64,000 bases of DNA from Terricaulis silvestris (lineage in GTDB: Bacteria > Pseudomonadota > Alphaproteobacteria > Caulobacterales > Aquidulcibacteraceae): NCBI RefSeq assembly GCF_009792355.1, contig NZ_CP047045.1, forward strand, positions 310,001 to 374,000, read 5' to 3'. The notes beneath the pieces are model-generated. The model was not told the origin of the DNA. It saw only the letters and a list, made by a program, of their open reading frames with translations, and ran no database searches. How positions within the stretch are numbered: position 1 is the stretch's first letter; every line of letters starts with the position of its first letter. Made by a program: the position numbers and the translations under genes. Below, piece by piece: positions 40,671 to 59,712 of this stretch.

Positions 40671-42728
40671 ATGGAATTTCGCTATCATGCGCTTATGGCG
40701 GCATGTCCGAATAGAGCTTTCCAGATCGGTTGCGCGTTGATGATCACGGCGTCCAGCGCGGCGACCGCGCAGACCGCGGTCCGGACACAAGCGGTGATCT
40801 ATGAGGCAGATCACTTCGCGCAGTTTGAACCCAGAACGGCGCTCGACATGGTCGAACGGGTGCCGGGCTTCGTCATTGATGAAGGCGAGGACCGGCGGGG
40901 TTTTGCCGGCGCGCAGAGCAATGTGCAGATCGATGGCGAACCGCCCGTCTCAAAAGCGCAGGAGATTGACGACATTCTGGAACGCATTCCGGCGCGGGAC
41001 GTGGTTCGGATCGAACTGATACGCGGCGCGGGATCGAATGCGGGGAGCGCACAGGGCGTCCGCGTCAATGTTGTGCGCAGTCCGACGAGTGGCGGTGGCG
41101 TCTGGGATCTAGGCGCGGCGTTGGCCGAGGACGGCCGGGTCTCGCCCGACGGCGGGATAGCGTGGTCGGGCCGCGTTCGAACGTTCGAGTACGGGCTGTC
41201 GGCTGACGTCGATATCGCCCACTTTCCGATCCGCGGCGAGCGTGCCGACTTCAATGCACTGGGATTCGTGGACGAAACGCGCATAGAGCGCGTGCCGACG
41301 GACGAACGCGAAGGGCGGATTGCTGGCGAGGCGTCGTTTCCATGGCTCAGCGGCTCAGCCTCTCTCAATGCGCAGGTGAGCCGCATCGAGCTCGACGAGC
41401 GTACGCAAACCGCCTTGCGCGACGGCTCAGGCGCGCCGGATGGCGCCATCGACGGCGTGTTGGAGGAGGGCGAAACCATCAGTGAAATCGGCGCATCTTG
41501 GCAGCGTGGCGTCGGGGTTTGGCGCGCGGATATCGACGCGATCCTCACGCGGCGCAGGTTCGAGGCCGGTGAAACGACGCGGGAGGAAGATGCATTAGGG
41601 GACCTTGAAGAAGCGGCCGAGCAGACGCAGCGGATCGATAGCGGTGAAACCATTTTGCGCGCTGCTGCGCAGCGGCCGGTCGCGGACGGATGGCGACTCG
41701 AACTCGGTGTTGAAGCAGCACTCAACACTTTGGAACAGCGGCTCAGCCTTACCGAAGACGACGGTGGCGGACCCGTGCCAGTGATGCTTCCCTCGGCGAA
41801 CGTGCGGGTTGAAGAAACGCGCGCGGAGGCGAGCGCCATGATGTCTGGCGCGCCGTGGCCGCGCTGGACGTTGGAGGCGGGCGGCTCCGTGGAAGTGTCG
41901 CGTCTGACACAGAGCGGCGACGCCACCCGCGAAACCAATCTCACTTATTGGAAACCGTCGATCCAACTGGTCCGCGCACTCGGCGAACGCGATCAACTGC
42001 GCTTTCGCTTCTATCGCGATGTCGGGCAACTTGATTTCGAAGATTTCGTTTCCGCATCGGACATCACGTCGTCGATCGTTGATGCGGGCAATCCCAATCT
42101 TCGGCCCGAGCGCTCGTGGCGGCTGGAAGCTGCGGGCGACTGGCGCTTTGGCGACGACGGCGCATTTGGGCTGACGCTCTATCGCTGGTTCATTGAAGAC
42201 GCGTTCGATCTCATCCCGCTCGGCCCGCCCGGCGATCAGTTGGACGCGCCAGGCAATATCGGTAATGCGGACGCCTATGGCGCGCGCGTTTCATTGGCGC
42301 TGCCGCTGCCGCTCGACGTTGAACTTCGGATTGACGCCATGGCGCGGCGCTCAAAAGCAGCCGATCCGCTCACGGGAGGAGCGCGCGCCATCTCCGGCTT
42401 CGATGAAAGCGCGGTGACGATTGGTTTGCGCCAGGATGTCGCCGCCTTTGCGTGGGGGCTCGACTACGAGCGCGAAACCGAAGCGCCGTCCTACAGACTT
42501 GACCGCATTGAAGGCGAGCAAGACGCTGAAGACCTCACGCTCTGGATCGAGACGACCGCTTACGGCGGCGTCAAGCTGCGCGCGTGGGGCGCCAATCTCA
42601 CCGACAGCGCCGACACGCGCGCGCGCCGCCTGTTTGATCCCGATCGGCTCGGCGCATTCGATGGATCCGATCGGCGCTCCCGCGGCGAAGGGCTGACATT
42701 TGGCCTCTCTGCCAGCGGGCGTTTCTAA
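40671..42728 (+). CDS. TonB-dependent receptor beside the phytase gene
   Basis: The 685-residue protein has a signal peptide ending at AATAQ; either Met1 or Met9 (40695) could start it, and neither has a clear ribosome site. The plug has TALDMVERVPGFVIDEG, VQIDGEPPVSKAQEIDDILERIPARDVVRIELIRG, of the FhuA/FecA-like group that lacks the classic LRGP loop. The barrel ends GLTFGLSASGRF. It is tail to tail with the phytase (3 bases), so it likely belongs to the same functional locus. Inferred ligand: phytate, an inositol phosphate, or a metal complex of these. Confidence 0.88.
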   Translation: MEFRYHALMAACPNRAFQIGCALMITASSAATAQTAVRTQAVIYEADHFAQFEPRTALDMVERVPGFVIDEGEDRRGFAGAQSNVQIDGEPPVSKAQEIDDILERIPARDVVRIELIRGAGSNAGSAQGVRVNVVRSPTSGGGVWDLGAALAEDGRVSPDGGIAWSGRVRTFEYGLSADVDIAHFPIRGERADFNALGFVDETRIERVPTDEREGRIAGEASFPWLSGSASLNAQVSRIELDERTQTALRDGSGAPDGAIDGVLEEGETISEIGASWQRGVGVWRADIDAILTRRRFEAGETTREEDALGDLEEAAEQTQRIDSGETILRAAAQRPVADGWRLELGVEAALNTLEQRLSLTEDDGGGPVPVMLPSANVRVEETRAEASAMMSGAPWPRWTLEAGGSVEVSRLTQSGDATRETNLTYWKPSIQLVRALGERDQLRFRFYRDVGQLDFEDFVSASDITSSIVDAGNPNLRPERSWRLEAAGDWRFGDDGAFGLTLYRWFIEDAFDLIPLGPPGDQLDAPGNIGNADAYGARVSLALPLPLDVELRIDAMARRSKAADPLTGGARAISGFDESAVTIGLRQDVAAFAWGLDYERETEAPSYRLDRIEGEQDAEDLTLWIETTAYGGVKLRAWGANLTDSADTRARRLFDPDRLGAFDGSDRRSRGEGLTFGLSASGRF

Positions 42729-42731
42729 GCC

Positions 42732-44807
42732 TCAGCGCGATTCCAGGTTTAGCGCGCCGGCGATCGCCGACCACGGGACAAGCTTGAAGTTCTGGAATTC
42801 TTGCGGCGCGATGTTGCGTCCGTCCTGCGCAATGAAGATGCCGTTGCCGTAGGCGCCGCCGAGATTGGCGCTCAAAACTTCGAGGCCGTCGGTTTCGGAA
42901 ATGCCGTCAATGCCGCGCGCGGCGTCGGCCAGAACGGCAAACGAACCAACGTAGTCGTTGTTACCTTCGCGACGGAACACTGCGTAGGTGTTGTTGCCCT
43001 GGCTCGACAACACGAGATAGCCGCGGCCACCGCCCAGATCATAAAGCCCGATGCCTTCGAGGTCGTCCTTGAGCGCTTCATTGGCTTCGACGGTGATGAC
43101 TGAAACGGGCGTAGCTGGCGCATCAGGTTCGGCGCCGACGCGCCACAGCCCAATGTCTTCTTCAGCAACGTAGAGCACGCCCGTCGCGTCATCGGCGACG
43201 CAGCCCTCGGTCTGTGTGGCGAAGGGAATGTCGCGCACGCGTTCGGCGCGGATGCGGCCATTGCCGGCGTCGATCAACTCCCACTGACGCAGTGGGCCGT
43301 TGCTGTCGGTGACAAACACGTAGGTCTTTCCCGATTGCGCGCTCTGATACATGCAGAGGCCATAGGGATCGACAAAGCCGGTCGGTTGCACGCCATCGGA
43401 GACATCGCTCAACCGCCGTGTCGCAGCATCGATGCGGTAGATCGAGATCGAATCGTCGGTCCGATTGCTGGCTGTGGCGATTGAGACGGTCTGGCCGCCG
43501 AGCGAGAAATTGTCGCGTACATCGACATTGTTCATGCGCCCGTCAGGCAAGAACTGCAGCACGCGGCCTTGCAGATCGTAGACGTAAAGCCCCGATTGCT
43601 TCTGCGTCGCGATGATAATGCTGCGCGAAGGATTGTTGCGGTCGACCCAAATTGCTGGATCGTCGGCGGCGTCGCCGTCGGTTTCCACCGGCCGCGTCTC
43701 TACGCTGGGATGCACGATAGCGATCGTCGAGTCCGGCGCCACACGCGGGTCGCGCGGAGTACCCGTGGCGAGGTTCAGCGCGCCGGCGATGTCTGCCCAG
43801 GAGACGAGCTTGTAGTTTGTGCCGCCGTCATTCTCGTCGTCCATGGCGAGCAGGGCGCCTTGCGGGAAGCGTGCGCCGTAGCCGAAGCTTGTCGCGTTCA
43901 AGCCGCCGGCGGCTTGAACGCCATCGGTCGCACCAGCGGGCGTTAACGCGAACGAGCCAACCAAGCGATAATCCGCGTTGCGGTCGTAAACATGGAAGCG
44001 ATTGGCTGAAGCGTCAGACGCAACAACATACGTCGTCGCGCCCGCATTGTAGACAGCGATGCCGCCGGCCTCCTCGGTGATATTGCCGACATGAGCGGCG
44101 TCGATCAGGCGCGGCACGACTTCGGCTTCCGGATCCGCCTCAAAGCGCCAAAAGCCGACGCCTTGCTCGGCAACGTAAAGGTCGCCATTTGCGTCATCAG
44201 CCGCGCAATAGCTGGCTTCCGACGCAACACGCAATTGACGCACCAATGTCGCGTCGAAACCGTCGCCGCGAGCCGAGATCATGTACTGCGCGATCTCGCC
44301 GCCGGCGCCGAGCGCGAATGCGTAAAGCGTGGAGTCGCGCGCATCGCGGTAAAGGCAGAGGCTTTCGCCGGCAAAGCCAATTGGAATGTCGCGCACGGTG
44401 CGCTCGCGGCCGGCGCCGGTTTGTGGATCGACTTCGAACAAGCGCAGCCGATTGGTGGCGCCGTCGAGCGCGGCGACGGTCCAAGCATTTGCGCTCGGCG
44501 CGCCGAAACGCGCGTCAATGCCGACGGCCGCGCCCGCGGCGATCGAGGAGATGCGTGCGCCGTCGAGACCATAGAGTTCGATGCCGCCGCTTTCGCTCGA
44601 GCCGACAATGACGCCATCGCCGTCGCCGCGCGGGAGGAGAACAGCGGTGTTGGCGTCGGACTGGACCGTCGGCGCAGTCTCGGCCAACGGCGCAACGCTA
44701 GGCAAGGCTGGCGGAGACGGAGCAGCCGGTTCGGGCACGCCACTTGTCGCACAACCCGCCAATGCTGCGGTTGCGAACAAACCAATGGCCCAGCGCTTCT
44801 GCTTCAT
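42732..44807 (-). CDS. Dual-domain beta-propeller phytase, lipoprotein
   Basis: ATG at 44807 (MKQKRWAIGLFATAALAGC) follows GAGGGGAC and gives a lipoprotein (lipobox LAGC). Two phytase-like propellers are in tandem. The second carries the canonical motifs: DADDPAIWVD-type TDGDAADDPAIWVD, DGRMNNVDVR, YGLCMYQSAQSGKTY, EGCVADDATGVLYVAEE, SSQGNNTYAV and QNFKLVPWSAIAGALN. The first ends in a matching NYKLVSWADIAGALN but lacks the DDPAIW motif, so it is probably catalytically weak or inactive. Beta-propeller phytases use Ca2+ to cleave phosphates from phytate, typically leaving inositol trisphosphates. Proteobacterial copies are often next to TBDR genes, as here. Confidence 0.92.
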   Translation of the reverse strand: MKQKRWAIGLFATAALAGCATSGVPEPAAPSPPALPSVAPLAETAPTVQSDANTAVLLPRGDGDGVIVGSSESGGIELYGLDGARISSIAAGAAVGIDARFGAPSANAWTVAALDGATNRLRLFEVDPQTGAGRERTVRDIPIGFAGESLCLYRDARDSTLYAFALGAGGEIAQYMISARGDGFDATLVRQLRVASEASYCAADDANGDLYVAEQGVGFWRFEADPEAEVVPRLIDAAHVGNITEEAGGIAVYNAGATTYVVASDASANRFHVYDRNADYRLVGSFALTPAGATDGVQAAGGLNATSFGYGARFPQGALLAMDDENDGGTNYKLVSWADIAGALNLATGTPRDPRVAPDSTIAIVHPSVETRPVETDGDAADDPAIWVDRNNPSRSIIIATQKQSGLYVYDLQGRVLQFLPDGRMNNVDVRDNFSLGGQTVSIATASNRTDDSISIYRIDAATRRLSDVSDGVQPTGFVDPYGLCMYQSAQSGKTYVFVTDSNGPLRQWELIDAGNGRIRAERVRDIPFATQTEGCVADDATGVLYVAEEDIGLWRVGAEPDAPATPVSVITVEANEALKDDLEGIGLYDLGGGRGYLVLSSQGNNTYAVFRREGNNDYVGSFAVLADAARGIDGISETDGLEVLSANLGGAYGNGIFIAQDGRNIAPQEFQNFKLVPWSAIAGALNLESR

Positions 44808-44916
44808 ATCGTCCCCTCGTCTAGTCTCGTTCGCGCGCTTTACGCGGCTTTTGCAAGGATTTCGCGTGGCATTGCTGCCACCCACGAAGCCGTTCTGCAA
44901 GAGAAATTCCAAAACG

Positions 44917-44940
44917 GTTGCAGAATGGAATATTCGTTCG
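44917..44940. promoter_or_regulatory. Candidate IolR-type operator in the divergent phytase/TBDR promoter
   Basis: GGAA-TATTCG-TTCG at 44927-44940 is close to the GGAA-N6-TTCC consensus described for IolR of Sinorhizobium. The 14-mer GTTGCAGAATGGAA (44917-44930) also occurs at 50560-50573, upstream of iolC. A second inverted pair, ATTCCA at 44906-44911 and TGGAAT at 44926-44931, is spaced two helical turns apart. Confidence 0.45.
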
Positions 44941-45022
44941 TATCATCGAACTGTCATGACAACCTCGTACTTGCCCGGCGCTTGCCCGGCGTGCAGCGGG
45001 GGCCTCGAGGGGAGAGCGGAAT

Positions 45023-47407
45023 ATGAAAACGATGCGGAAAGTAGCGCTGCGGACGCTGCTGATGTCGTGCCTGTCTTTGCCAGGCGTCGCCTATGCGCAA
45101 GACGCGCAGCCGGCCCAGGAAGAAGAGAGCCTGGAAGACATCGTCATCACGGGTGAGATTCAATATCGCAATCGCACCGACACGGTCGCGCCAGAGCTGG
45201 TGTACGACCAACAATTCTTCGAGCAGTTCGAACCGCTCTCGGTCGGCGATCAGCTGTCGCGCGTGCCGGGCGTTGCCTTCACCAGCGACATCGGTGAGCG
45301 CGACGCGCCGCAGATGCGCGGCCTTGGCGAGGGTTTCACGCAAGTGCTGGTCAATGGCCGGCCGATTCCCGGCGCCGGCAATGACCGCACCGTTTTCGTT
45401 GACCGCATTCCGGCGGAAATCATCGATCGCATCGAGATCGTGCGCTCGCCAAGCGCTGACATCGACAGCCAAGGCATCGGCGGCACCATCAACATCATTC
45501 TGAAGGACGGCATGAGCCTGCCGCCGGGCATTATTGCCCGCGTCGGCGCGGTTTATGACACCGACAATGAAGAGCTGAATGGCCTGGGCGCGTTGTCGTT
45601 CTCCGGCCGCACCGAAGATCGCACAATGGCCTGGTCGGGCACGTTCGACTACCAGAACCGCTACAACGTGAAGGTTCTCGATCAACAATTGTTCGACGAC
45701 ACCTCGCCGGGCTTCGATCCGACGCGTGATGGCCGCAACCTGTTTGATCCGGATGGTTTCGACCCCACAGTGCCATCGACCAACGCCGTCGAGCACGAAG
45801 ACCAGATCGATACGCGCGACAGCACTGATCTGTCGTTCAACGGCGACCTTACGTTCGCCTTGGCGCCCGAGCATCAACTGCGGTTCGACGCATTCGTGCT
45901 CAACACCGAGCGAGATGAAACGGAAGAGGGCACGCTCTATGTTCGCAGCGACGATATCGGCGACGGCGGCGACGACGACGGCGATGTCTCGGATGAAGTG
46001 TGGAATCTCGACGAGATTGCGTCACAGGCTCAGCACATCGAGCAACAGAGCTTCGGCGTGTCGGCGCTTTATGAGGGTCAATTTGGTCCGAACTGGTCGT
46101 TCGAAAGCCAGGCGCGCTACGCGAACTTCACTGAGGACAATGTTGAGACCAGCTTCGAAGACGATCCGCCGGAGCCGGTTGAACAGGTCGTCATCGATAG
46201 CGACGACACTGAAATGTCTGTCGACGGCGAGCTGACTTTCGACTCCGAGGCCTTCGCGCAAAGCCTAGGCATGGCCGGCTTCTCACTCGAGTTCGGCGTC
46301 GCGCTCAAGCAGAAGAGCCGTGACTACAACCAGCAGGAATTCGAAGACGATAACGGCGACGGCGATTTCGACGATCCAGACGATAACATTACGCCCGACA
46401 GCGGCCTGTTTGAGTACCAAGAAGATCGCTTCGACGCCTGGGTCATGGCCGAGATGGAGCTGACGCCCGCGCTGACGGTTCAACTCGGCGTCCGTTCGGA
46501 AAACACCGAGACTGAAGCCAACGTCATCGGCGGTGCGTCGGGCACGAGCTCGGAAGATCAGCTCAACCCCTCGATGCACGTGCAGTGGGAGCCATGGGAG
46601 GACGGCCAGTTCCGCGTCAGCTACGCGCGCACGGTTCGCCGTCCGAGCTTGGATCAGGTCGTGCCATTCGCGAACTCAGATTCGCCGGAGGATGACGACG
46701 AGACCTTCGGCAATCCGAATCTCGAGCAGGAAACCGCCTGGGGTTACGACATCGGCTACGAACATCGCATCGGGACCCGCGGCGTGATCGGCTTCAACTA
46801 CTTCCACCGCGACGTTGAGAACTTGATCTCGCTCATCAACACTGGCGTTTCGACCGGCGTGCCGGGCGCGTTCGAGTACACCTTCGAAAACACCGGCGAC
46901 GGTGAGGTGTCCGGTTGGGAAGTCGACGTTTCGACGCCGCTTTCCTTTATCGGCCTCGATGAAACCGGCTTCTTTGCCAACTACACCAGCCTCGACTCCG
47001 AACGCACGGAGCCGCTGACGGGCCTGCAAGCGCGCTTCAACGCGCAGCCGGAATACGTCTACAATTGGGGCGTCACGCACAATATCCCGACCTGGGATAT
47101 GAGCGCGGGTTTCAGCTACCGGAAGCAAGGCCTGTCCACTTCTGTGTTCCTCGGCGAGGTAGAGCGGCAATGGTATGACGCCAACCTCGAAGTGTTCGTG
47201 GAACGCCGGCTCTCGGACAACCTCGTGCTGCGCCTTGTCGGCAACAACTTGCTCGACGCCGACAGCATCCAGGCTGAGCAAAACTTTGACGGCGACTTCG
47301 CTTCGGAAATTATCGATGCTCAGATCGCGGGCGATGTCGACGAGTTCGAAGTTGAACGCGAAAACTCCTCGCCGACGGTGCTGGTATCGCTGCGCGCCGT
47401 GTTCTGA
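45023..47407 (+). CDS. TonB-dependent receptor divergent from phytase, with Asp-rich loops
   Basis: A GAGGGGAG site precedes the ATG at 45023. The 794-residue protein has a Sec signal to about residue 25 (AYAQD), TonB box EDIVITGEIQ, and a plug with VGDQLSRVPGVAF, QMRGLGEGFTQVLVNGRPI and RIEIVRSPSADIDSQGIGGTINI. The barrel ends in VLVSLRAVF. Two Asp/Gly loops (residues 310-325 and 442-455, the latter with an EF-hand-like DxNGDGDFDDPDD) could bind Ca2+. It is transcribed divergently from the phytase and ends in a strong terminator. Ligand inferred: phytate or its breakdown products. Confidence 0.93.
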   Translation: MKTMRKVALRTLLMSCLSLPGVAYAQDAQPAQEEESLEDIVITGEIQYRNRTDTVAPELVYDQQFFEQFEPLSVGDQLSRVPGVAFTSDIGERDAPQMRGLGEGFTQVLVNGRPIPGAGNDRTVFVDRIPAEIIDRIEIVRSPSADIDSQGIGGTINIILKDGMSLPPGIIARVGAVYDTDNEELNGLGALSFSGRTEDRTMAWSGTFDYQNRYNVKVLDQQLFDDTSPGFDPTRDGRNLFDPDGFDPTVPSTNAVEHEDQIDTRDSTDLSFNGDLTFALAPEHQLRFDAFVLNTERDETEEGTLYVRSDDIGDGGDDDGDVSDEVWNLDEIASQAQHIEQQSFGVSALYEGQFGPNWSFESQARYANFTEDNVETSFEDDPPEPVEQVVIDSDDTEMSVDGELTFDSEAFAQSLGMAGFSLEFGVALKQKSRDYNQQEFEDDNGDGDFDDPDDNITPDSGLFEYQEDRFDAWVMAEMELTPALTVQLGVRSENTETEANVIGGASGTSSEDQLNPSMHVQWEPWEDGQFRVSYARTVRRPSLDQVVPFANSDSPEDDDETFGNPNLEQETAWGYDIGYEHRIGTRGVIGFNYFHRDVENLISLINTGVSTGVPGAFEYTFENTGDGEVSGWEVDVSTPLSFIGLDETGFFANYTSLDSERTEPLTGLQARFNAQPEYVYNWGVTHNIPTWDMSAGFSYRKQGLSTSVFLGEVERQWYDANLEVFVERRLSDNLVLRLVGNNLLDADSIQAEQNFDGDFASEIIDAQIAGDVDEFEVERENSSPTVLVSLRAVF

Positions 47408-47434
47408 TCGCAAAGTCCTTATCCCAAACCCTTC

Positions 47435-47463
47435 AGCGGCCCCGAAAGGGGCCGCTTTCTTTT
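47435..47463 (+). terminator. Intrinsic terminator of the TBDR gene
   Basis: AGCGGCCCC and GGGGCCGCT form a perfect nine-base-pair stem with a GAAA tetraloop, followed by TTCTTTT. It also separates the TBDR from the convergent inositol dehydrogenase genes. Confidence 0.95.
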
Positions 47464-47479
47464 GGATCAGTGAAGAAGG

Positions 47480-48460
47480 CTAGAGCGAGACCGGCGCGCC
47501 GCTCTTCAGCGACTGTTGTGCTGCGGTGGCGAGCTTAAGCGCCCCAACGCCATCGCTGTAACCGATCTGCGCCATTGCGCCGCGAGCCATGATGTCGGCG
47601 AAGTGCGCCATCTCGAGGTGGTAGGCGGTGGCGTAGCGGTCGAGGAAGAAGTTCTGGAATTGATCGGCTTGCGCACCGCTCTCGGTCCAAGCTTCCACCG
47701 TGCTTTCGACCACGTTGCCCGCTCGCAGCGCTCCTTCCGAGCCGAACGCCTCGATGCGTTGATCGTAACCGTAGCCGCTGCGGCGGCTGTTGGAGATGAC
47801 GCAGAGCTTGCCGGACGGTGTGCGCAGAATAGTCTTCGCCGTGTCGATATCGCCGAGGCGACCAATCTCGGGGTCGATCAGGCATGCACCCGCTGCGAAC
47901 ACCTCGCTGGGCTCTTCGCCGAGGATCCAGCGCGCCATGTCGAAATCGTGGATCGCCATGTCCTTGAACAGCCCGCCACTGATTGGAATGTAGCCGGCAG
48001 GCGGTGGGGACGGGTCGTGGCTGGTGATGTGAAGCGTCTCCAGCTTGCCTACCGCGCCGGCGTCCAACTTCTTCTTCAGGGCGCGGAAGTTCGGATCGAA
48101 GCGGCGGTTGAACGCCAAGAAGAGCCGGGCGCCTTCGAACTTCGACGCCGCATCTTCCGCGCGCGCCAGATCGAGATCGATCGGCTTCTCGCAAAAGATC
48201 GCCTTGCCGGCTTGGGCTGCGCGCAAACTAAAATCGAGATGCGTATCCGTCGAACTGGCGACGATGACGCCGTCGACCGAGGCGTCGCCGAGCGCGCCGT
48301 CCAAATCCGCGGTCTTCGCGCCGAATGATGCGGCCGCCGATTTCGCTGCGTCTGCGATCGGATCGACCACATAGGCAAGCTGTAGGTCCGGGTGCGCCGC
48401 GACATTGGCAGCATGGATGCGGCCGATCCGGCCTGCACCGATGAGAGCAATCTTGTGCAT
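47480..48460 (-). CDS. iolG: Inositol 2-dehydrogenase family enzyme (second copy)
   Basis: ATG at 48460 (MHKIALIGAGRIGRIHAANVAAH) with GAGG upstream gives 326 residues. It has an N-terminal Rossmann fold, the CEKPIDLDLA motif with the catalytic Lys, and GGLFKDMAIHDFDMARW with the Asp/His pair of Gfo/Idh/MocA inositol dehydrogenases. It oxidises myo-inositol or a stereoisomer (scyllo, chiro) to an inosose with NAD+. It is closely paralogous to the gene eight bases upstream, and the pair forms an operon. Confidence 0.85.
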   Translation of the reverse strand: MHKIALIGAGRIGRIHAANVAAHPDLQLAYVVDPIADAAKSAAASFGAKTADLDGALGDASVDGVIVASSTDTHLDFSLRAAQAGKAIFCEKPIDLDLARAEDAASKFEGARLFLAFNRRFDPNFRALKKKLDAGAVGKLETLHITSHDPSPPPAGYIPISGGLFKDMAIHDFDMARWILGEEPSEVFAAGACLIDPEIGRLGDIDTAKTILRTPSGKLCVISNSRRSGYGYDQRIEAFGSEGALRAGNVVESTVEAWTESGAQADQFQNFFLDRYATAYHLEMAHFADIMARGAMAQIGYSDGVGALKLATAAQQSLKSGAPVSL

Positions 48461-48468
48461 GTTCGTCC

Positions 48469-49458: not shown

Positions 49459-49644
49459 ACGCCCTCGCAACCAGCAGCCGTTCCGCGCGGCGTCAATCGC
49501 GCCGGCCGTTTTCGGAACGCCTGTTACAACAATGCTCGCTTATGGAACGTATTTTCTGAAACTGGCAAGCCCCGGAAGGCGGTGATCGTTGCGTTCCATC
49601 GGCGGAAAATATATTCTGCAGCGGATCGTTGCTCCGGAGCCTCA
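49459..49644. promoter_or_regulatory. Divergent idh/rpiR promoter with three GGAA-N6-TTxx sites
   Basis: Sites: GGAA-CGCCTG-TTAC at 49514-49527, GGAA-CGTATT-TTCT at 49544-49557, and GGAA-AATATA-TTCT at 49604-49617. Each resembles GGAA-N6-TTCC with one changed base in the right half. Three in one 186-base divergent promoter, beside an RpiR gene, is the strongest operator evidence in the window. Confidence 0.5.
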
Positions 49645-50593: not shown

Positions 50594-50645
50594 ATAACCT
50601 GCCGCGACGGCTTTCCGCGCGGCGCCCGAGGCGCGGAAGTTCGCA

Positions 50646-52568: not shown

Positions 52569-54409
52569 AGACGGTGCGCCTCACCGCGGCGCAGGCCGCG
52601 ATCCGCTATCTCGCAAACCAATACATCGAGACCGATGGCGGCGAGGTACGATACTTCGCCGGCGCCTGGGCGATCTTCGGACATGGCAATGTCGCGGGCT
52701 TAGGGGAGGCGCTCTACGCAGCGCGCGATGCGCTGCCGACCTATCGCGCTCATAACGAACAAGCCATGGCGCACGCGGCGATCGCTTACGCCAAGCAGAT
52801 GCGCCGCCGCCGCGCGATGATCTGCACGACATCAATCGGTCCGGGCGCCACCAACATGGTCACGGCCGCTGCACTCGCGCATGTGAACCGACTTCCGGTG
52901 CTGCTGATGCCCGGCGACGTTTATGCCTCGCGGCGTCCTGATCCTGTGCTGCAACAGATCGAGGATTTCGGTGACGCGACGGTTTCCGCCAATGAAAGCT
53001 TCCGGCCGGTTTCGCGTTTCTTCGATCGCCTCACGCGCCCCGAGCAAATCTTGGATTCACTGCCGCGCGCGATGGCAACGCTGCTTGATCCGGTCAATTG
53101 CGGGCCCGCGACCCTCGGCTTCTGCCAGGACGTGCAGGCCGAAGCGTTCGATTATCCAGCCGCGTTCTTGGAAAAACGCGTCTGGCGTATCCGCAAACCG
53201 CAGCCTGAAGCGCGGGATGTCGATGCGCTCGCAGCGTTGCTGAAGGCATCGAAGGCGCCATTGATCATCGCAGGCGGGGGCGTGCTGTACGCCGGTGCCG
53301 AGGACGCGCTGTCGCGCTTCGCCCAAGCCACTGGCGTACCTGTCGCCGAGACCCAAGCCGGCAAAGGCGCGCTCGCGTGGAACCATTCGAGCGTACTCGG
53401 CTCGATTGGCGTCACTGGCGCCAGTGCAGCCAACGAAGCGGCGGCCGCCGCTGATGTCATCATCGCCATTGGCACGCGCCTTCAAGATTTCACCAGCGGC
53501 TCGCGCACATTGTTCGAGCGCGACGGCGCTACGCTCATCCAAGTCAATGTCGCGCCACACGACGCGCACAAGCACGGTGCTCGCGCGGTGGTGGGTGACG
53601 CGGGGGCGGTGATCGGAGCCCTCGAAGGGAAACTTGGCGGCTGGAAGACGCCCGCACCGTGGCGCGATGCCAACGTAAACCGTGTGGCGACCTGGAATGA
53701 CGCCGTCGCTGCCGCGACTGCAGCGCCGAAAGGCCAAGGCAAGCCCAGTGATGCGCAAGTCATTGGCGCCGTGCAACGTGCGGCCAACGAAAGCGCCGTC
53801 GTGGTCTGCGCCGCGGGCGGCCTGCCGGGAGAACTGCACAAGCTCTGGCGAACGGGAAAGCCCGGCGGCTACCACGTTGAATACGGTTTCTCGTGCATGG
53901 GCTACGAAATCGCTGGCGGCCTCGGTGTGAAGATCGCCGCGCCAGAGCGCGACGTGTACGTCATGGTCGGCGACGGCTCGTACCTGATGATGAACTCCGA
54001 GATCGCGACGTCAGTGATGCTCGGCAAGAAGCTCACCATCGTTGCACTCGACAATCGCGGCTATGGCTGCATCAACCGCCTGCAGCGGTCCACCGGCTCG
54101 GAATCGTTCAACAACCTCCTGGCCGACGCGACGCATGAAACACTGCCGGACATCGATTTCGCTGCGCATGCTGCCAGTCTCGGTGCGATCGCCGAGAAGG
54201 TCGATAACGTTGCGGGCCTCGAGCACGCGCTCGCGCGGGCCAAGTCTGCCGACCGCACCAGCGTCATCGTTATCGACACCGACCCCATGATCACCACGGA
54301 AGCCGGCGGCTGGTGGTGGGATGTCGCGGTGCCGGAAGTGTCCGAGCGTTCACAAGTGCGCGAAGCGCGCAAGATCTACGAAAACAAGATCAAGAAGGGC
54401 GACGCATGA
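52565..54409 (+). CDS. iolD: 3D-(3,5/4)-trihydroxycyclohexane-1,2-dione hydrolase
   Basis: The 614-residue ThDP enzyme has the N-terminal PYR domain (RYLANQYIETDGGEVRYFAG, NEQAMAHAAIAYAKQ with the conserved Glu), a central domain and a C-terminal PP domain with the ThDP-Mg motif VGDGSYLMMNSEI (around residue 468) and ALDNRGYGCINRLQ. It hydrolytically opens the trihydroxycyclohexanedione ring to 5-deoxyglucuronate. It is coupled to iolC and iolE by four-base overlaps. Confidence 0.95.
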   Translation: MKTVRLTAAQAAIRYLANQYIETDGGEVRYFAGAWAIFGHGNVAGLGEALYAARDALPTYRAHNEQAMAHAAIAYAKQMRRRRAMICTTSIGPGATNMVTAAALAHVNRLPVLLMPGDVYASRRPDPVLQQIEDFGDATVSANESFRPVSRFFDRLTRPEQILDSLPRAMATLLDPVNCGPATLGFCQDVQAEAFDYPAAFLEKRVWRIRKPQPEARDVDALAALLKASKAPLIIAGGGVLYAGAEDALSRFAQATGVPVAETQAGKGALAWNHSSVLGSIGVTGASAANEAAAAADVIIAIGTRLQDFTSGSRTLFERDGATLIQVNVAPHDAHKHGARAVVGDAGAVIGALEGKLGGWKTPAPWRDANVNRVATWNDAVAAATAAPKGQGKPSDAQVIGAVQRAANESAVVVCAAGGLPGELHKLWRTGKPGGYHVEYGFSCMGYEIAGGLGVKIAAPERDVYVMVGDGSYLMMNSEIATSVMLGKKLTIVALDNRGYGCINRLQRSTGSESFNNLLADATHETLPDIDFAAHAASLGAIAEKVDNVAGLEHALARAKSADRTSVIVIDTDPMITTEAGGWWWDVAVPEVSERSQVREARKIYENKIKKGDA

Positions 54410-55296
54410 GCATCAGATTCGGCGTCAGCCCCATCGCCTGGGCCAATGACGACATGCCAGAACTCGGTGCCGACACGCCGCTCGAAACCATCCTCGCGGA
54501 GTCGCGCGAGATTGGCTTTGAAGGCATCGAACTTGGCGGCAAGTTTCCGCGCGAACCGAACGCGCTGAAGGCAGCACTCGCACCCTATGGCCTCGACTGC
54601 GTCGGCGGCTGGTATAGCGGCAATCTGCTGAAGCAGGACGCCGATGCCGAAATCACCGCGCTGCAGGATCATCTCAAGCTGTTGAAGGCGATGGGCTCCA
54701 AAGTCTTTGTTTTCGCTGAAACCAGCAACGCCGTGCACAGCAACAAGGCCGTGCCACTTGAAGGCACACCGCGCTTGAAGGCCAGCGACTGGGTCGAGTT
54801 CGGCGCGCGCATGACCAAGGTTGCCGACTACATCGCGGGCCAAGGCATCAAATTCGCGTACCACCATCACCTCGGCACGGTCGTAGAAAACCAAGCCGAC
54901 ATGGAAGCCTTCATTGCAGCCACAAGCCCGAGCGTCGGCTTCACGCTCGACACCGGCCACGCAGCGTTGGGCGACGTCAAAACCATCGACATCATCGAGC
55001 GCTTCCCCGAACGCGTCGCGCATGTTCACTGCAAGGACGTGCGCGGACCTGTCCACGCCGAAGCGCGCCGCATCGGCAAGAGCTTCCTCGATGGCGTACT
55101 CGCCGGCATGTTCACCGTGCCGGGCGACGGTAGCATCGACTTTGGCGCCGTAATGCGCGCATTGAAGGGCATCAGCTATAGCGGCTGGATCATCGTCGAA
55201 GCCGAACAGGATCCCGTCATAGCCAATCCCAAAGTATACGGCGCGATGGGTTTCTCGACGCTGAAGCGGGAAGCCGCCAAGGCCGGACTGATTTAA
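54406..55296 (+). CDS. iolE: Myo-inosose-2 dehydratase
   Basis: ATG at 54406 overlaps the iolD stop as ATGA. The 296-residue TIM-barrel protein has RFGVSPIAWANDDMPELG, GFEGIELGGKFPRE, VFVFAETSNAVHSN, KFAYHHHLGTVVE, LDTGHAALGD and VHCKDVRG, matching xylose-isomerase-fold IolE with its metal-binding Glu/Asp/His. It dehydrates 2-keto-myo-inositol to the substrate of IolD. Confidence 0.95.
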   Translation: MSIRFGVSPIAWANDDMPELGADTPLETILAESREIGFEGIELGGKFPREPNALKAALAPYGLDCVGGWYSGNLLKQDADAEITALQDHLKLLKAMGSKVFVFAETSNAVHSNKAVPLEGTPRLKASDWVEFGARMTKVADYIAGQGIKFAYHHHLGTVVENQADMEAFIAATSPSVGFTLDTGHAALGDVKTIDIIERFPERVAHVHCKDVRGPVHAEARRIGKSFLDGVLAGMFTVPGDGSIDFGAVMRALKGISYSGWIIVEAEQDPVIANPKVYGAMGFSTLKREAAKAGLI

Positions 55297-55310
55297 CGGA
55301 GCAGGAGCCA

Positions 55311-56117
55311 ATGCCCGACTTACGCGTGCGCTCGAAGCAACGGGACGATAGCGGCGCCGTGCTCACCGTGACGCCCGAAAGCGCAGGCTGGACTTATGTC
55401 GGCTTCAAAGTCGTGAAGCTCGAACCCGGCGAGAGCGCCGGAGGCGGCGAGGTGGGACGCGAAGCTTGTCTCATCGTCTTAAGCGGCCGTTGCGACATCG
55501 AAGTGGGCAAACAGCGTTTCGACAATATCGGCGAGCGCATGAGCGTGTTCGACGACATCTCGCCCGCCGCGGTCTACGCGCCAGCCGGCGTGCTCTACGC
55601 CATCACTGCACGTACGCCGCTCGAAGTCGCGATCGGCTCCGCGCCCGGCGCAGGCGGCGGCGAAGCGCGGCTCATTCCGTCGGAGCGCATCACCAAGGAA
55701 ACGCGCGGTGAGGGCACGAACACACGCTACGTGCGCAACATTCTGCCCGAAACCGAAGTGGCCGATAGCCTGCTGATCGCTGAGGTGATCACGCCCGGCG
55801 GCAATTGGTCATCGTATCCGCCGCACAAACACGATCGCTTGGCGGAGCCGCACGAGTCCCATCTCGAAGAGGTGTACTACCACCGCCTCAACCCGCCGCA
55901 GGGCTTTGCCTTCCAGCGCGTCTACACTGACGACCGCTCGCTCGATGAAACGGTCAGCGTTGAAGACGGTGATGTCGTGCTGGTGCCACGCGGCTATCAC
56001 CCGGTCGGCGCTCCGCACGGCTACGATCTCTACTATCTGAACATTATGGCTGGGCCGAAGCGGACTTGGATCTTCAACAACGACCCAGCGCATGCCTGGA
56101 TCGCCAAGAAGAAATAA
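55311..56117 (+). CDS. iolB: 5-deoxy-glucuronate isomerase
   Basis: GGAGCAGGAG precedes the ATG at 55311. The 268-residue bicupin protein has GWTYVGFKVVKLEPGE, ECLIVLSGR-type EACLIVLSGRCDIEVG and the C-terminal cupin motif WSSYPPHKHDRL..ESHLEEVYYHRLNPPQGFAFQ with its His/Glu metal ligands, then VPRGYHPVGAPHGYDLYYLNIMAGP. It converts 5-deoxyglucuronate to 5-dehydro-2-deoxygluconate, the IolC substrate. Confidence 0.96.
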   Translation: MPDLRVRSKQRDDSGAVLTVTPESAGWTYVGFKVVKLEPGESAGGGEVGREACLIVLSGRCDIEVGKQRFDNIGERMSVFDDISPAAVYAPAGVLYAITARTPLEVAIGSAPGAGGGEARLIPSERITKETRGEGTNTRYVRNILPETEVADSLLIAEVITPGGNWSSYPPHKHDRLAEPHESHLEEVYYHRLNPPQGFAFQRVYTDDRSLDETVSVEDGDVVLVPRGYHPVGAPHGYDLYYLNIMAGPKRTWIFNNDPAHAWIAKKK

Positions 56118-56135
56118 AGAAAAGGGGGGAAGCGC

Positions 56136-57482
56136 GTGGCGGGTGGATTACTAAAGGCGTTCGCGACAGCGGCCGACGCGCCGCTGATCGGCGATCAAAA
56201 AGAGATCGACCGCATTTTCAAGTCGACGCGCTGGCGCGTGATGTTCGCCATCACCGTCGGCTACGGGTTGATCTACACCTGCCGCCTCGCCATCGGCATG
56301 GTGAAGCCGTCAATGATAGACGCCGGCATCTTCACGCCGGCGGAGTTCGGTCTGATCGGCTCGGCGCTGTTCTACACCTACGCACTCGGCAAGCTCACCA
56401 ACGGATTCTTTGCCGACCACTCCAACATGCGCGTGTTCTTGACGTTCGGTTTTCTCATGACCGCGGTCTGCAATGTCGCCATGGGCTTTGCCGACACGGT
56501 CCTCGTCGCCGCGATTGTTTGGGGGCTCAACGGGTACTTCCAAGGCTTCGGCGCGCCGGGGGGCGTCGTGGCAATGACGTCGTGGTTCTCCAACAAGGAG
56601 CGCGGCCGCGCCTACGGCCTGTGGAGCACAGCGCACTCGATCGGCGAAGGACTGACCTTCTTCGTCATCGGCTCCGTCGTTGCGTATTTTGGCTGGCGCT
56701 GGGGCTATTTCGTACCGGCGATGATCGGCTTTGGCGCCGCCGCCATGATGTGGCTCATGGTCCGCGATCGCCCGCGCACCATGGGCCTGCCCACGGTTGC
56801 GGATTGGAAGAACGATCACCTGCCCGAAAGTGAATCCTCCAAGGCTAAGAGTACGCTGGCGCTGCAATTCTCGATCTTGCGCATCCCGACGATCTGGATT
56901 CTCGCGCTGGCCAGCCTCGCCAACTACATCACGCGCTACGCCATCAACTCATGGGGGCCGCTCTACCTGCAAGAGGCGCGCGGATTTGACGAAATCGCAT
57001 CCGGCACGATGCTGATGATCTCGACGCTCGCTGGCATCGCCGGGTCGCTGCTCTACGGTGTGATCAGCGACAAGTTCTTCAACGCACGGCGTCCGCCGGC
57101 CAACCTGTTGTTCTCGATCGTCGAGATTATCGGCCTTGTCCTCATTTTCTTCGGCCCCACCGACCTTGTGACGTTGACCATCGGCATGGTTCTGTTCGGC
57201 CTTGGCCTGACGGGTCTCGTCGCCTCGCTCGGTGGTTTATTTGCTGTCGATATTTGCCCCAAGCGCGTCGCTGGCGCGGCCATGGGCGTGATCGGCGTCT
57301 TCTCTTATATCGGCGCCGCCATCCAGGAGAACATCAGCGGCGTCATGATCGACCAGAGTTCGCACATGGTCGGCGCCGATCGCGTTTATGATTTCGGTCC
57401 CGTGATCTGGTTTTGGCTGGGGTCGTCGATCGTCTCCATGGTGCTCGCCGCCACACTGTGGCGCGCGAAGCTGCGCGACTGA
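56136..57482 (+). CDS. MFS transporter of the organophosphate:phosphate antiporter type
   Basis: GTG at 56136 follows a GGGGGG ribosome site. The 448-residue protein has about twelve transmembrane helices. Sequences such as YGLIYTCRLAIGMVKPSMIDAG, YTYALGKLTNGFFADHSNMRVF, GYFQGFGAPGGVVAMTSWF, RGRAYGLWSTAHSIGEG and YAINSWGPLYLQEARGF are typical of the GlpT/UhpT/UhpC (OPA) family and not of sugar-type inositol transporters. Placement between iolB and an inositol phosphatase suggests an inositol-phosphate or sugar-phosphate substrate (inference). The stop overlaps the next start by one base. Confidence 0.85.
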   Translation: MAGGLLKAFATAADAPLIGDQKEIDRIFKSTRWRVMFAITVGYGLIYTCRLAIGMVKPSMIDAGIFTPAEFGLIGSALFYTYALGKLTNGFFADHSNMRVFLTFGFLMTAVCNVAMGFADTVLVAAIVWGLNGYFQGFGAPGGVVAMTSWFSNKERGRAYGLWSTAHSIGEGLTFFVIGSVVAYFGWRWGYFVPAMIGFGAAAMMWLMVRDRPRTMGLPTVADWKNDHLPESESSKAKSTLALQFSILRIPTIWILALASLANYITRYAINSWGPLYLQEARGFDEIASGTMLMISTLAGIAGSLLYGVISDKFFNARRPPANLLFSIVEIIGLVLIFFGPTDLVTLTIGMVLFGLGLTGLVASLGGLFAVDICPKRVAGAAMGVIGVFSYIGAAIQENISGVMIDQSSHMVGADRVYDFGPVIWFWLGSSIVSMVLAATLWRAKLRD

Positions 57483-58300
57483 TGAGCCCGCTCCTCACCG
57501 CCATGTCCGAAGCCGCACGCGCAGCGGGCGAGGGGCTTGTGGCCGACTCCGCCCGTGTCCGCACTGAGCTGGTGGTTCAAAACAAGATCGGCCCTGATTT
57601 CGTGAGCCAGGCCGATCTACGCGCCGAAGCCACGATCAAGGCGATCCTCGCCGAGCATGCGCCGGACTACGCCTTCCACGGCGAAGAAGGCGGCCGCGTC
57701 GGCGGCGAACATTCCGATCTCACCTGGCTGGTCGATCCGCTCGACGGCACCACCAACTTCCTCTGGGGCGCGCCGCTGTTCGGCACCTGCATTGCGCTTG
57801 CGCGTGGCGATGAGGTGCTCGCAGGCGTCATCAACATGCCGGTGCTCGGCGAGTTGTTGTGGGCCGAGCAGGGCAAGGGCGCGTTTTTGAACGGCAAGCC
57901 GATCCGCGTCAGCGACAAGACGCGCATCGAAGACGCCGTCATCGCCTTCGGCATTCCGCACGCAGGGAAACCAGGCCACGACCTTTTCCGTGAAGAGATG
58001 GGCCGGCTCTCGCGCAAAGCCACCGGCGTGCGCCGCACCGGCTCTGCCGCCGTCGATCTCGCTTACGTCGCGTGCGGCCGTTGGGACGCTTACGTCGAGC
58101 GCATCGTCGCCGCATGGGACATGGCCGCAGGCGTCGGCATCATCATTGAAGCCGGCGGCGCGGCGACCGATGCCGACGGCAATCCACTGAAGCTTCACGG
58201 CGGCAGCGTCTGCGCCGGCGCGCCCGCGCTGATCGCGCCGCTCACCGCCGAAATGCGAGCCGCAGGCGCAAGTCTCGACTCAGAAAGAGCGAAAGCATGA
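57482..58300 (+). CDS. Inositol monophosphatase family protein
   Basis: The 272-residue protein has the Mg/Li-sensitive phosphatase signature: FHGEEGGRVGGEH, WLVDPLDGTTNFLWG and the C-terminal AAWDMAAGVGIIIEAGG. It would release myo-inositol from inositol monophosphate, feeding the dehydrogenases in this locus. Related enzymes also act on other phosphate esters (SuhB/CysQ/histidinol-phosphatase group), but the operon favours inositol phosphate. It starts one base inside the transporter stop and overlaps the phoD start by four bases. Confidence 0.9.
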   Translation: MSPLLTAMSEAARAAGEGLVADSARVRTELVVQNKIGPDFVSQADLRAEATIKAILAEHAPDYAFHGEEGGRVGGEHSDLTWLVDPLDGTTNFLWGAPLFGTCIALARGDEVLAGVINMPVLGELLWAEQGKGAFLNGKPIRVSDKTRIEDAVIAFGIPHAGKPGHDLFREEMGRLSRKATGVRRTGSAAVDLAYVACGRWDAYVERIVAAWDMAAGVGIIIEAGGAATDADGNPLKLHGGSVCAGAPALIAPLTAEMRAAGASLDSERAKA

Positions 58301-59712
58301 CGACACACCGCCGCTCCCTGCTGAAGCACGCTGGATTGATCGCAGCATCGTTTCCGTTCGTACCAGCAGCTTGGGCGCAAACTTTGGGCTACCCGCGCAC
58401 GCTGCAGGGCCCGATGGTTGGTGCGCCGACGCCGACGTCACTTCGCGTCTGGGTGCGCACCAGCGGGACGTTCGATGTCATCCTCGAGGCGGCCACGCGC
58501 CGCGACTTCGCGGACGTCCGCGCCTCGGCGCCCATGGAGTCGAACGCCGGCAACGATTTCTGCGTCGCACCACAGATCGAGGAGCTCACGCCGGCAACGG
58601 CGTACTTCTACCGCTTCAAGTTCGACGGCGTCACCGATCGCTACCAACCGCTGCCGTACCGCACCAAGACAGCGCCACGCGGTCGCGCGCGCTTCCGTGT
58701 AGCGTTCGGCTCGTGCGCCCGGCTGCAGATTGACACCGACCAGCGCATCTTCACCGTCGCCCAGGCGCTTGAGCCAGACCTCATGTTCTTCCTTGGTGAC
58801 AACATCTACGCCGATAGCGCCGAACCAGCCGCGCTCGCCGACCTCTACCGTCGCCAGCGCGAGATCGAACGTCTGAAGCCTTTCATCCGCTCAACGCCGT
58901 CTCTGGCGATTTGGGACGACCACGACTTCGCGCTCAACGACAGCGACCGCAATAATCCGATCCGCACGCAAGCGCTCGATCTCTTCAAGACGTACTGGGC
59001 CAACCCATCCTACGGCCTGCCGCAAACGCCGGGCATCTTCTTCAAGTACGAGTATGGCGGCGTCGACTTCTTCTTCCTCGATGGGCGCTACAATCGCCAT
59101 CCGACCGACTACGAAGGCGCCGACAAGACCATGCTCGGCGCCGAGCAAAAGGCGTGGCTCAAGGATCAGCTCCGCGCCAGCCGTGCGCCGTTCAAGGTGC
59201 TGGTCTCGGGCGGCGGCTTCTCGAAAGCCGAACGTGGCGGCGATTCATGGGCGGTCTACACGTCTGAGCGCGACGAGCTTCTCGGCTTCATTCGCGACAA
59301 CCACATCGAAGGCGTGTTCGGCATTTCTGGCGACAGCCACATGGGCGAACTGAACTGCGTGCCGCGCTCGGAACAGGGCGGCTACGATCTCTATGACTTC
59401 TGCTCGTCGCCGCTCGCCAACTTCCCTGACAGCGACTTCGTCGATCAAATGCCAGAGGTCCGCATCCGGCCGACTTACACGCGAAGCGTCAATGTGGGCC
59501 TGATGGAGTTCGATTTCGACGACGGTCCGCGCATGACTTACACACTTCACAACATGATCGGCGCACCAGCATGGGCGCCCTTGGTGTTGACGCCGGCCGA
59601 CCTGCGGAACGGCGTGTCCACGTGGCGCGCCAAGATCGACCCTCGTGAACTGCAGCGGCTGGAACGCTACCGCGCCGGTGGCAGCTATTTTGATCCGGAG
59701 GGCGACGGCTAG
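58297..59712 (+). CDS. phoD: PhoD-like metallophosphatase, Tat-exported
   Basis: The 471-residue protein begins TTHRRSLLKHAGLIAASF, a twin-arginine signal of the RRxLLK type, cleaved near AWAQ. The PhoD core has FRVAFGSCARL, FFLGDNIYAD, AIWDDHDFALNDSDR, FLDGRYNR and GISGDSHMGEL, with Ca/Fe ligands by family pattern. PhoD enzymes are phosphodiesterase/phosphomonoesterases. Last gene of the iolCDEB run, overlapping the phosphatase by four bases. It could further dephosphorylate inositol phosphates in the periplasm or help scavenge phosphate. Confidence 0.92.
   Translation: MTTHRRSLLKHAGLIAASFPFVPAAWAQTLGYPRTLQGPMVGAPTPTSLRVWVRTSGTFDVILEAATRRDFADVRASAPMESNAGNDFCVAPQIEELTPATAYFYRFKFDGVTDRYQPLPYRTKTAPRGRARFRVAFGSCARLQIDTDQRIFTVAQALEPDLMFFLGDNIYADSAEPAALADLYRRQREIERLKPFIRSTPSLAIWDDHDFALNDSDRNNPIRTQALDLFKTYWANPSYGLPQTPGIFFKYEYGGVDFFFLDGRYNRHPTDYEGADKTMLGAEQKAWLKDQLRASRAPFKVLVSGGGFSKAERGGDSWAVYTSERDELLGFIRDNHIEGVFGISGDSHMGELNCVPRSEQGGYDLYDFCSSPLANFPDSDFVDQMPEVRIRPTYTRSVNVGLMEFDFDDGPRMTYTLHNMIGAPAWAPLVLTPADLRNGVSTWRAKIDPRELQRLERYRAGGSYFDPEGDG

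What the first reader, a model, noticed from the sequence alone, without database searches (positions are those of the whole stretch)
40671..59712. A compact phytate-to-central-metabolism locus
Phytase, two receptors, two inositol dehydrogenases, IolR-like regulator, iolCDEB, an OPA-type transporter, an inositol monophosphatase and PhoD occur together in about 19 kb. Seen directly: the genes, their overlaps and the shared promoter motif. Known: beta-propeller phytases cleave phytate, and Iol enzymes burn inositol. Inferred: the locus lets the cell take phosphate and carbon from one plant-derived molecule, with receptors for uptake, periplasmic and cytoplasmic phosphatases and a ring-opening pathway. 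I know phytase-TBDR neighbours and iol operons as separate modules, but I do not recall the two fused like this.
Basis: partly seen in the sequence, partly recalled or inferred. Interest (0 to 1): 0.85.

Follow-up and report, generated by a model that had tools for sequence, protein, structure and literature searches.

The report
Phytate-to-inositol catabolic locus with phosphate-ester importer
A block of neighbouring bacterial genes appears to strip phosphates from phytate, the main phosphorus store of plant seeds, import what is left as a phosphorylated sugar alcohol and burn it for carbon, and the same gene set recurs in distantly related bacteria with a shared DNA switch.

Summary
In detail: 40671-59712 encodes a two-domain beta-propeller phytase, two TonB receptors, two IolG-type dehydrogenases, an RpiR/SIS regulator, iolCDEB, an OPA-family transporter, an inositol monophosphatase and a PhoD-like phosphatase. 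The linkage is not chance: in 398 genomes of the order, 12 of 21 with iolD carry a two-domain phytase against 20 of 377 without, and 11 of the 12 have both within 10 kb. An operator model trained on iol promoters without linked phytase finds a strong site before 11 of 12 linked phytases and 0 of 23 unlinked ones. The new element is the transporter: a GlpT-like subfamily that travels with phytase, inositol monophosphatase and iol genes across Alpha- and Gammaproteobacteria (phytase within 20 kb in 37 of 49 named genomes); in five of seven such loci of the order no free-inositol-type importer was found beside it. Best reading: phytate is trimmed outside the cytoplasm, inositol (mono)phosphate enters in exchange for phosphate, is dephosphorylated inside and oxidised, under the inositol repressor. 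Transport substrate, expression and growth on phytate are untested.

The parts
40671..42728 (+). TonB-dependent receptor 1 (TBDR1), convergent with the phytase
   Evidence: PF14905, PF00593 over cut-off; plug domain just below its cut-off; no strong IolR operator upstream
42732..44807 (-). Two-domain beta-propeller phytase, lipoprotein-like signal (LAGC read by eye); C-terminal domain with intact motifs, N-terminal repeat degenerate
   Evidence: PF02333 465 bits, 2 stretches; Bacillus-type phytase structures (1poo, 1cvm, 1qlg, 3amr) E 1e-81 to 4e-80; motifs only in C-domain, repeats 29% identical
44896..44941 (.). Two IolR-type operator sequences (44896-44911, 44926-44941) between phytase and TBDR2
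   Evidence: PWM scores 12.5 and 15.6; 44926 ranks fourth in the 64-kb window, 44896 eighth
44940..44957 (+). Pho-box-like repeat GTATCAT-CGAA-CTGTCAT beside the operator
   Evidence: best Pho-box-like site of the window, 12 of 14; consensus recalled, not from a call
45023..47407 (+). TonB-dependent receptor 2 (TBDR2), divergent from the phytase
   Evidence: PF00593 128 bits, PF07715 62 bits; a related receptor adjoins the phytase in 10 of the 11 other linked loci (7 at 43-68% identity, 3 at 23-29%; not in G152)
47480..48460 (-). IolG1, inositol 2-dehydrogenase
   Evidence: TIGR04380 415.7 bits, cut-off 355; Lys of EKP and His of IHD present
48469..49458 (-). IolG2, second inositol-dehydrogenase-like protein
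   Evidence: TIGR04380 346.8 bits, just under cut-off 355; a second IolG at 54-80% identity in the six other OPA-type loci; none of 10 iol loci without linked phytase has a close one, three have a 25% relative
49543..49618 (.). Two IolR-type operator sequences in the iolG2/rpiR divergent promoter
49645..50541 (+). RpiR/SIS regulator, Caulobacter IolR type
   Evidence: PF01380 57.9, PF01418 28.4 bits
50550..50594 (.). Two IolR-type operator sequences upstream of iolC
   Evidence: the two best sites of the window
50646..52568 (+). IolC kinase fused to DUF2090 aldolase
   Evidence: NF047869 760 bits, cut-off 600
52565..54409 (+). IolD
   Evidence: TIGR04377 926 bits, cut-off 715
54406..55296 (+). 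IolE
   Evidence: TIGR04379 371 bits, cut-off 290; ATGA overlap with iolD
55311..56117 (+). IolB
   Evidence: TIGR04378 342 bits, cut-off 205
56136..57482 (+). OPA-family transporter, predicted inositol-phosphate:phosphate antiporter
   Evidence: GlpT 1pw4 E 1.6e-53; R50, K86, H167, R267 align with the GlpT Arg, Lys, His and Arg recalled as R45, K80, H165, R269 and are kept in 86-87 of 87 relatives, with K57 and E171 in 87; no NCBIfam cut-off reached
57482..58300 (+). Inositol monophosphatase, no signal peptide seen by eye
   Evidence: PF00459 205 bits; SuhB/IMPase structures; EE, DPLDGT, WD motif residues in 48 of 48
58297..59712 (+). PhoD-like phosphatase with a twin-arginine-like signal (by eye)
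   Evidence: PF09423 89 bits, PF16655 43 bits; 2yeq PhoD E 1e-9

Best explanation
This is a dedicated phytate-as-carbon locus. (1) TBDR2, and probably TBDR1, bind or import phytate or its products across the outer membrane (inferred). (2) The lipoprotein-like beta-propeller phytase and then PhoD trim it to lower inositol phosphates, finally a monophosphate (activity inferred from family). (3) The OPA transporter imports inositol (mono)phosphate in exchange for inorganic phosphate (inferred; the new step). (4) The cytoplasmic IMPase releases inositol (inferred from family). (5) IolG1/IolG2, IolE, IolD, IolB and IolC-DUF2090 convert it to central metabolites, with IolA elsewhere on the chromosome. 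(6) The RpiR-type IolR represses phytase, TBDR2, iolG and iolC from shared operators until inositol intermediates appear (operator sequences found; binding, repression and inducer inferred from Caulobacter IolR). Phytate carries one phosphate per carbon, so when it serves as carbon source phosphate is in surplus and exporting it by antiport is cheap.
For: Linkage: 12 of 21 iolD genomes versus 20 of 377 others have a two-domain phytase; 11 of 12 within 10 kb. Regulation: operator in 11 of 12 linked phytase promoters (11 genomes, G245 twice), 0 of 23 unlinked, with a model trained on promoters without linked phytase; 36 of 44 phytase promoters from named relatives also carry it. Transporter: OPA, IMPase, PhoD and a close IolG2 in 7 of 12 linked loci, and OPA, IMPase and PhoD in 0 of 10 iol loci without linked phytase and 0 of 23 unlinked phytase loci (several of these stretches end at contig ends); 9 of those 10 iol loci have an ABC, SSF or MFS_2 importer, assigned to inositol by family and place only, while five of the seven OPA loci, the window's included, showed none of these. 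Other variants: Pleomorphomonas has IMPase-OPA-histidine acid phosphatase of AppA type and no beta-propeller phytase match in the genome. Phosphate-site residues conserved. In the 49 closest OPA loci an IMPase lies within 10 kb in 42 and a core iol gene in 39.
Against: No transport, expression or growth data exist here. The closest OPA relatives outside the genus (L108, L109, L179, 74-75% identical, Hyphomonadaceae-type MAGs) sit with no phytase, IMPase or iol genes found, and their genomes have no PF02333 match, so the transporter can serve elsewhere. Eight of the 31 other OPA loci show none of the partners. Two of seven OPA loci of the order also carry an inositol-type ABC importer. G000 has one BPD_transp_2 permease elsewhere, 38% identical over 179 aa to the locus-type one, and all three genomes checked have Sugar_tr (PF00083) proteins, so a free-inositol route is not excluded. 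Beta-propeller phytases are recalled to stop at inositol trisphosphate; that PhoD finishes the job is a guess. G152 has phytase beside iol without operator, receptor or OPA. Eight of 44 named phytase promoters lack a strong operator.
Confidence: 0.68

Rival explanations
1. The phytase half releases phosphate and free inositol outside the cytoplasm (phytase plus PhoD), inositol enters by an unrecognised permease, and the OPA protein with IMPase serves another phosphate ester such as a sugar phosphate.
For: The f5-family loci (G222, G245, G277) look built that way: PhoA, porin O/P and a sodium:solute symporter, without OPA or IMPase in the stretch; Hyphomonadaceae-type OPA relatives without iol genes; G097 and G220 have an ABC importer as well.
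Against: OPA and IMPase sit inside the iol unit with overlapping frames and occur in 0 of 10 iol loci without linked phytase; G031 and G108 have no PF02653 and no PF00474 match at E 1e-5.
Confidence: 0.2
2. Chiefly a phosphorus-scavenging locus: the cell uses phytate for phosphate and the iol genes only dispose of the inositol.
For: A Pho-box-like site lies beside the operator in this window; the Flavobacterium phytase-TBDT pair is induced at low phosphate (PMC8115612, passages).
Against: Pho-box-like sites score 10.7 or more in 10 of 23 unlinked phytase promoters but in 1 of 12 linked ones, the window's own (Fisher p 0.036; threshold set after seeing the scores); the linked ones carry the inositol operator.
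Confidence: 0.1
3. Chance neighbourhood of two common modules.
For: Phytases are common (227 of 398 genomes); G152 shows that a phytase can lie beside iol genes without the operator.
Against: Same gene set across two families of the order and Gammaproteobacteria, with shared operators.
Confidence: 0.02

Closest known systems
Caulobacter crescentus iol module with IolR (PMC2597717, passages read)
   Same: GGAA-N6-TTCC operator; regulator gene beside idhA and iolC by the coordinates given; the window's 50579 site matches the published iolC motif 2 in 14 of 16 bases
   Different: Published module has its ABC inositol transporter at another locus; phytase appears only in the reference list of the text
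Phytase-TonB receptor pairs (Citromicrobium, PMC3400609; Flavobacterium Fjoh_1367/1368, PMC8115612; passages read)
   Same: Phytase next to a TonB-dependent receptor
   Different: No inositol catabolism attached in the passages read; the Flavobacterium pair is phosphate-starvation induced
GlpT / SLC37A4 organophosphate:phosphate antiporters
   Same: Family by sequence; phosphate-binding Arg, Arg, His, Lys positions of GlpT
   Different: Subfamily-specific K57 and E171 where GlpT and SLC37A4 have Met and Gly; genomic partners are phytase, IMPase and iol genes
Mitsuokella jalaludinii phytate pathway (PMC7618129, passages read)
   Same: One organism degrades phytate through inositol 2-monophosphate and inositol
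   Different: Authors name an inositol transporter; no OPA-IMPase route in the passages read

Membership tests
Beta-propeller phytase (PF02333) | Propeller domain profile with DAADDPAIW-type motif | tested here: met
   whole protein 465 bits; C-terminal domain 337, N-terminal 136 bits; motif at residue 414, absent from the N-terminal repeat
Beta-propeller phytase (PF02333) | Calcium-dependent phytate hydrolysis | not testable with these tools
   needs assay
Bacterial iol pathway | IolG, IolE, IolD, IolB, IolC curated models | tested here: met
   TIGR04380, 04379, 04377, 04378, 04382/NF047869 over cut-off
Bacterial iol pathway | IolA malonate-semialdehyde dehydrogenase | tested here: met
   not in the locus but at G000:731778, TIGR01722 681 bits
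Caulobacter-type IolR regulon | RpiR/SIS regulator with GGAA-N6-TTCC-like operators | tested here: met
   PMC2597717 passages; RpiR class of Caulobacter IolR is recalled
Caulobacter-type IolR regulon | Derepression on regulator deletion | not testable with these tools
   needs mutant
OPA antiporter (GlpT/UhpT) | Conserved phosphate-binding Arg pair and His (roles recalled) | tested here: met
   R50, R267 in 87 of 87 and H167 in 86 of 87
OPA antiporter (GlpT/UhpT) | Membership in a characterised member (GlpT, UhpT, UhpC, PgtP) | tested here: not met
   all below cut-off, best UhpC 273 of 564 bits
OPA antiporter (GlpT/UhpT) | Exchange of an organic phosphate for phosphate | not testable with these tools
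   needs transport assay
Inositol monophosphatase | Family profile and metal-site motifs | tested here: met
   PF00459 205 bits; motif residues in 48 of 48; NCBIfam inositol-1-monophosphatase cut-off not reached (159 of 332)

The most novel reading that the evidence does not exclude
The OPA protein founds a subfamily of inositol-phosphate:phosphate antiporters, spread over Pseudomonadota, Acidobacteriota, Neomarinimicrobiota and KSB1, and phytate is eaten as a carbon source through import of a phosphorylated inositol, with the phytase moved from phosphate control to the inositol repressor. In distant lineages the transporter sits with IolG-type dehydrogenases and a PfkB kinase, so some bacteria may use a different intracellular inositol-phosphate route.
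Probability: 0.55. Interest if true: 0.82.

Novelty: new variant of a known kind. Interest (0 to 1): 0.72.

Why it matters
Phytate is a major pool of organic phosphorus in soil and feed, and its breakdown is usually treated as a phosphate question with inositol as a by-product. A conserved, apparently transferable locus that links phytase to inositol catabolism with the inositol operator says that some bacteria treat phytate as carbon food. It names a transporter subfamily whose substrate can be tested directly, gives a genomic marker for complete phytate degradation, and points to isolates (Brevundimonas, Luteimonas, Pseudoxanthomonas, Caulobacter) in which to test it.

Tried and rejected
Chance linkage: rejected by the contingency table and operator test. 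The ORF family beside iolB was first taken for a permease; it is IolA. My first gene calls in the fetched loci picked antisense frames (some of them gave no family) and were redone with codon scores. A script called 43 of 49 phytase-OPA pairs linked by position alone; six of these (L115, L116, L118, L120, L136, L140) were taken out because contig lengths show another contig, which leaves 37; with L132, which the script had already called far, seven have the phytase on another contig of a fragmented assembly. RNA families: nothing in the locus at gathering thresholds. Structure prediction was not run: the question is substrate, not fold.

Literature: no paper with this fused locus was found in nine searches of an open-access library; subscription papers are not covered. 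PMC9430895 and PMC12838507 (passages): the first surveys iol clusters and shows no such linkage in the 12 of 26 places displayed; the second reports no conserved gene neighbourhood around phytase genes across genera in pig isolates. PMC12482443 and PMC9414882 (passages) gave nothing on the point.
Full report
What is there. The 19-kb stretch holds thirteen genes. On the right, iolC, iolD, iolE, iolB, an OPA transporter, an inositol monophosphatase and a PhoD-like phosphatase run in one direction with gaps of at most 18 bases and four overlaps. A divergent promoter separates the RpiR/SIS regulator from two IolG-type genes. To their left a second divergent promoter serves TBDR2 and a two-domain beta-propeller phytase; TBDR1 converges on the phytase. 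Family assignments are; structures related by sequence are solved phytases, GlpT and SLC37A4, SuhB and IMPase and PhoD. The phytase start shows a lipobox-like LAGC and PhoD a twin-arginine-like start, both read by eye. The N-terminal phytase repeat is 29% identical to the C-terminal one and lacks its motifs.

Where it comes from. The window is G000:C1:310001-374000 of a single-contig genome. Two relatives in its order match Brevundimonas lenta and Brevundimonas sp. Root1279 in contig length and gene position, so the order is taken as Caulobacterales. The own family is probably near Hyphomonadaceae, from the OPA tree only.

Is the linkage real? In the own family iolD occurs in 2 of 60 genomes, this one and G031, both beside a two-domain phytase. 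In the order sample iolD occurs in 21 of 398 and a phytase with a domain over 300 bits in 32 of 398, counted from the list (all 32 have two or more PF02333 matches). Both occur in 12; expectation under independence is 1.7; Fisher p = 1.5e-9, without correction for relatedness. In 11 of the 12 they lie within 10 kb; in G216 they are on different contigs.

Three designs. Type I, seven genomes (G000, G031, G097, G108, G220, G271, G303): OPA, IMPase, PhoD and a second IolG. Type II, three genomes (G222, G245, G277): PhoA-type phosphatase, porin O/P and two receptors by the phytase, and a sodium:solute symporter near the iol genes (in G245 seen in one of two copies, the other being cut by its contig), without OPA or IMPase in the stretch. 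In G152 the phytase is a mere neighbour. G271 and G303 add a histidine acid phosphatase. Of ten iol loci without linked phytase (G085, G101, G168, G176, G216, G219, G254, G310, G345, G391), none has OPA, IMPase, PhoD or a close IolG2 within the 20 kb fetched (three have a 25% IolG2 relative), and nine have an ABC, SSF or MFS_2 importer; G254 has none of these. That these importers carry inositol is inferred from family and place. Of seven type I loci, five showed none of the three importer kinds in the stretch searched and two (G097, G220) have the ABC importer as well. The unlinked phytase loci are 23: 20 two-domain ones in genomes without iolD, the G216 phytase, a single-domain phytase of G176 and a second, split copy in G052; none shows OPA, IMPase or PhoD, but several of these stretches end at a contig end near the phytase. 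Whole-genome searches found no PF02653 and no PF00474 match in G031 and G108, and in G000 one PF02653 permease, 38% identical over 179 residues. PF00083 matches exist in all three genomes, at no more than 131 bits; a sugar-porter route is not excluded.

Regulation. A 16-base model was seeded with the Caulobacter consensus (PMC2597717, passages) and trained on 19 iolC and rpiR promoters of the ten iol loci without linked phytase. In the whole window the five best sites are in this locus, one of them between phytase and TBDR2. With a uniform 500-base upstream stretch, linked phytases score 11.5-17.1 in 11 of 12 (12 phytases in 11 genomes; G152 3.0), unlinked ones at most 8.3 in 23 of 23 (Fisher p = 2.9e-8). 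In 46 further phytase stretches from the named genomes, which include copies on other contigs, 44 were long enough and 36 scored 10.9 or more; the eight that did not are L119, L149, L152, L197, L203, L206, L220 and L223. L217 is the same genome as G271, L193 and L223 are one genome, and L210 and L212 give the same sites. Counts are not independent, since many rows are relatives. A Pho-box-like repeat (consensus recalled; threshold set after seeing the scores) reaches 10.7 or more in 10 of 23 unlinked promoters, 1 of 12 linked ones (the window) and 5 of 44 named ones, with shuffles averaging about 9.3; Fisher p is 0.036 for unlinked against linked and 0.002 against linked and named together. 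This suggests, weakly, that phosphate control was replaced by, or in this genome combined with, inositol control.

The transporter. A scan of GTDB genomes with the OPA alignment kept 80 loci of 116 relatives. I split them by list order: 49 (L108-L155 and L179, 59-75% identical) and 31 others (48-61%; L156 at 59% and the partial L185 at 61% fall there). Among the 49, 42 have an IMPase, 39 a core iol gene, 33 an IolG and 11 a phytase within 10 kb (some loci are cut by contig ends). I searched another 49 named genomes for PF02333, a set that overlaps the first but is not the same (it leaves out L129, L135 and L150 and adds L180, L181 and L184): 44 have it. It is on another contig in 7 and absent in 5. 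The absent ones: three Hyphomonadaceae-type MAGs with isolated OPA genes, one Lysobacterales MAG (L151), and Pleomorphomonas oryzae, where IMPase-OPA is followed by an AppA-like histidine acid phosphatase, below the curated cut-off (265 of 585 bits). Among the 31 others, 22 have an IolG-like gene and 8 a phytase within 10 kb and eight show none of the partners; in L172 two adjacent genes pass the inositol 2-dehydrogenase cut-off and a PfkB kinase follows. R50, K57, E171 and R267 are invariant in 87 sequences (some genomes counted twice), K86 and H167 kept in 86; by the GlpT alignment R50, K86, H167 and R267 are the phosphate-site positions (their roles recalled), while K57 and E171 replace Met and Gly. 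The tree mixes Alpha- and Gammaproteobacteria, consistent with lateral transfer; one MAG (L140) has an OPA identical to Rhodanobacter L142 and is probably misbinned.

Mechanism and doubts. The model is in Best explanation. Shown: gene content, overlaps, operator sequences, residue conservation, co-occurrence. Inferred: all activities, direction of transport, operator binding, inducer, localisation. Recalled: that beta-propeller phytases stop at a trisphosphate; that OPA carriers exchange organic phosphate for phosphate. Against: isolated OPA relatives, two loci with both importers, G152, eight named phytase promoters without operator, and a possible sugar-porter route.

Novelty. Enzymes and regulator belong to known families and pathways; the combined locus and the OPA subfamily were not found in the nine literature searches listed. 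I rate it a new variant of a known kind, with a testable prediction of a new transport activity.

Noticed in passing
window 35995-38385: S9-type peptidase resembling lasso-peptide isopeptidase (NF033523 162 bits, below the 400 cut-off), no Pfam match at E 0.001.
   Followed up: no
L086 (G052) and L087 (G043): Two same-genus genomes hold a 75-77% identical two-domain phytase without iolD (one with TBDR1 in two pieces); weak operator-like sequence upstream (8.3 in G043) may be a remnant of a lost iol block.
   Followed up: partly
L172, L161, L168, L124: A PfkB-type kinase follows the OPA gene in distant phyla and in Povalibacter (the L168 one just under the Pfam cut-off); in L172 two genes over the inositol-2-dehydrogenase cut-off precede it. 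Possibly a different inositol route.
   Followed up: partly
L109, L179, L108: Closest OPA relatives outside the genus (74-75%) stand alone, in L179 near an ABC-F-like ATPase, a GGDEF protein and an NADH dehydrogenase-like gene, in genomes without a PF02333 match.
   Followed up: partly
L140 and L142: OPA proteins of a Phenylobacterium MAG and a Rhodanobacter MAG are identical; probably a misbinned contig.
   Followed up: no
window 6544-6630 and 23498-23587: Two tRNA genes, Leu (cag) and Ser (gga).
   Followed up: no
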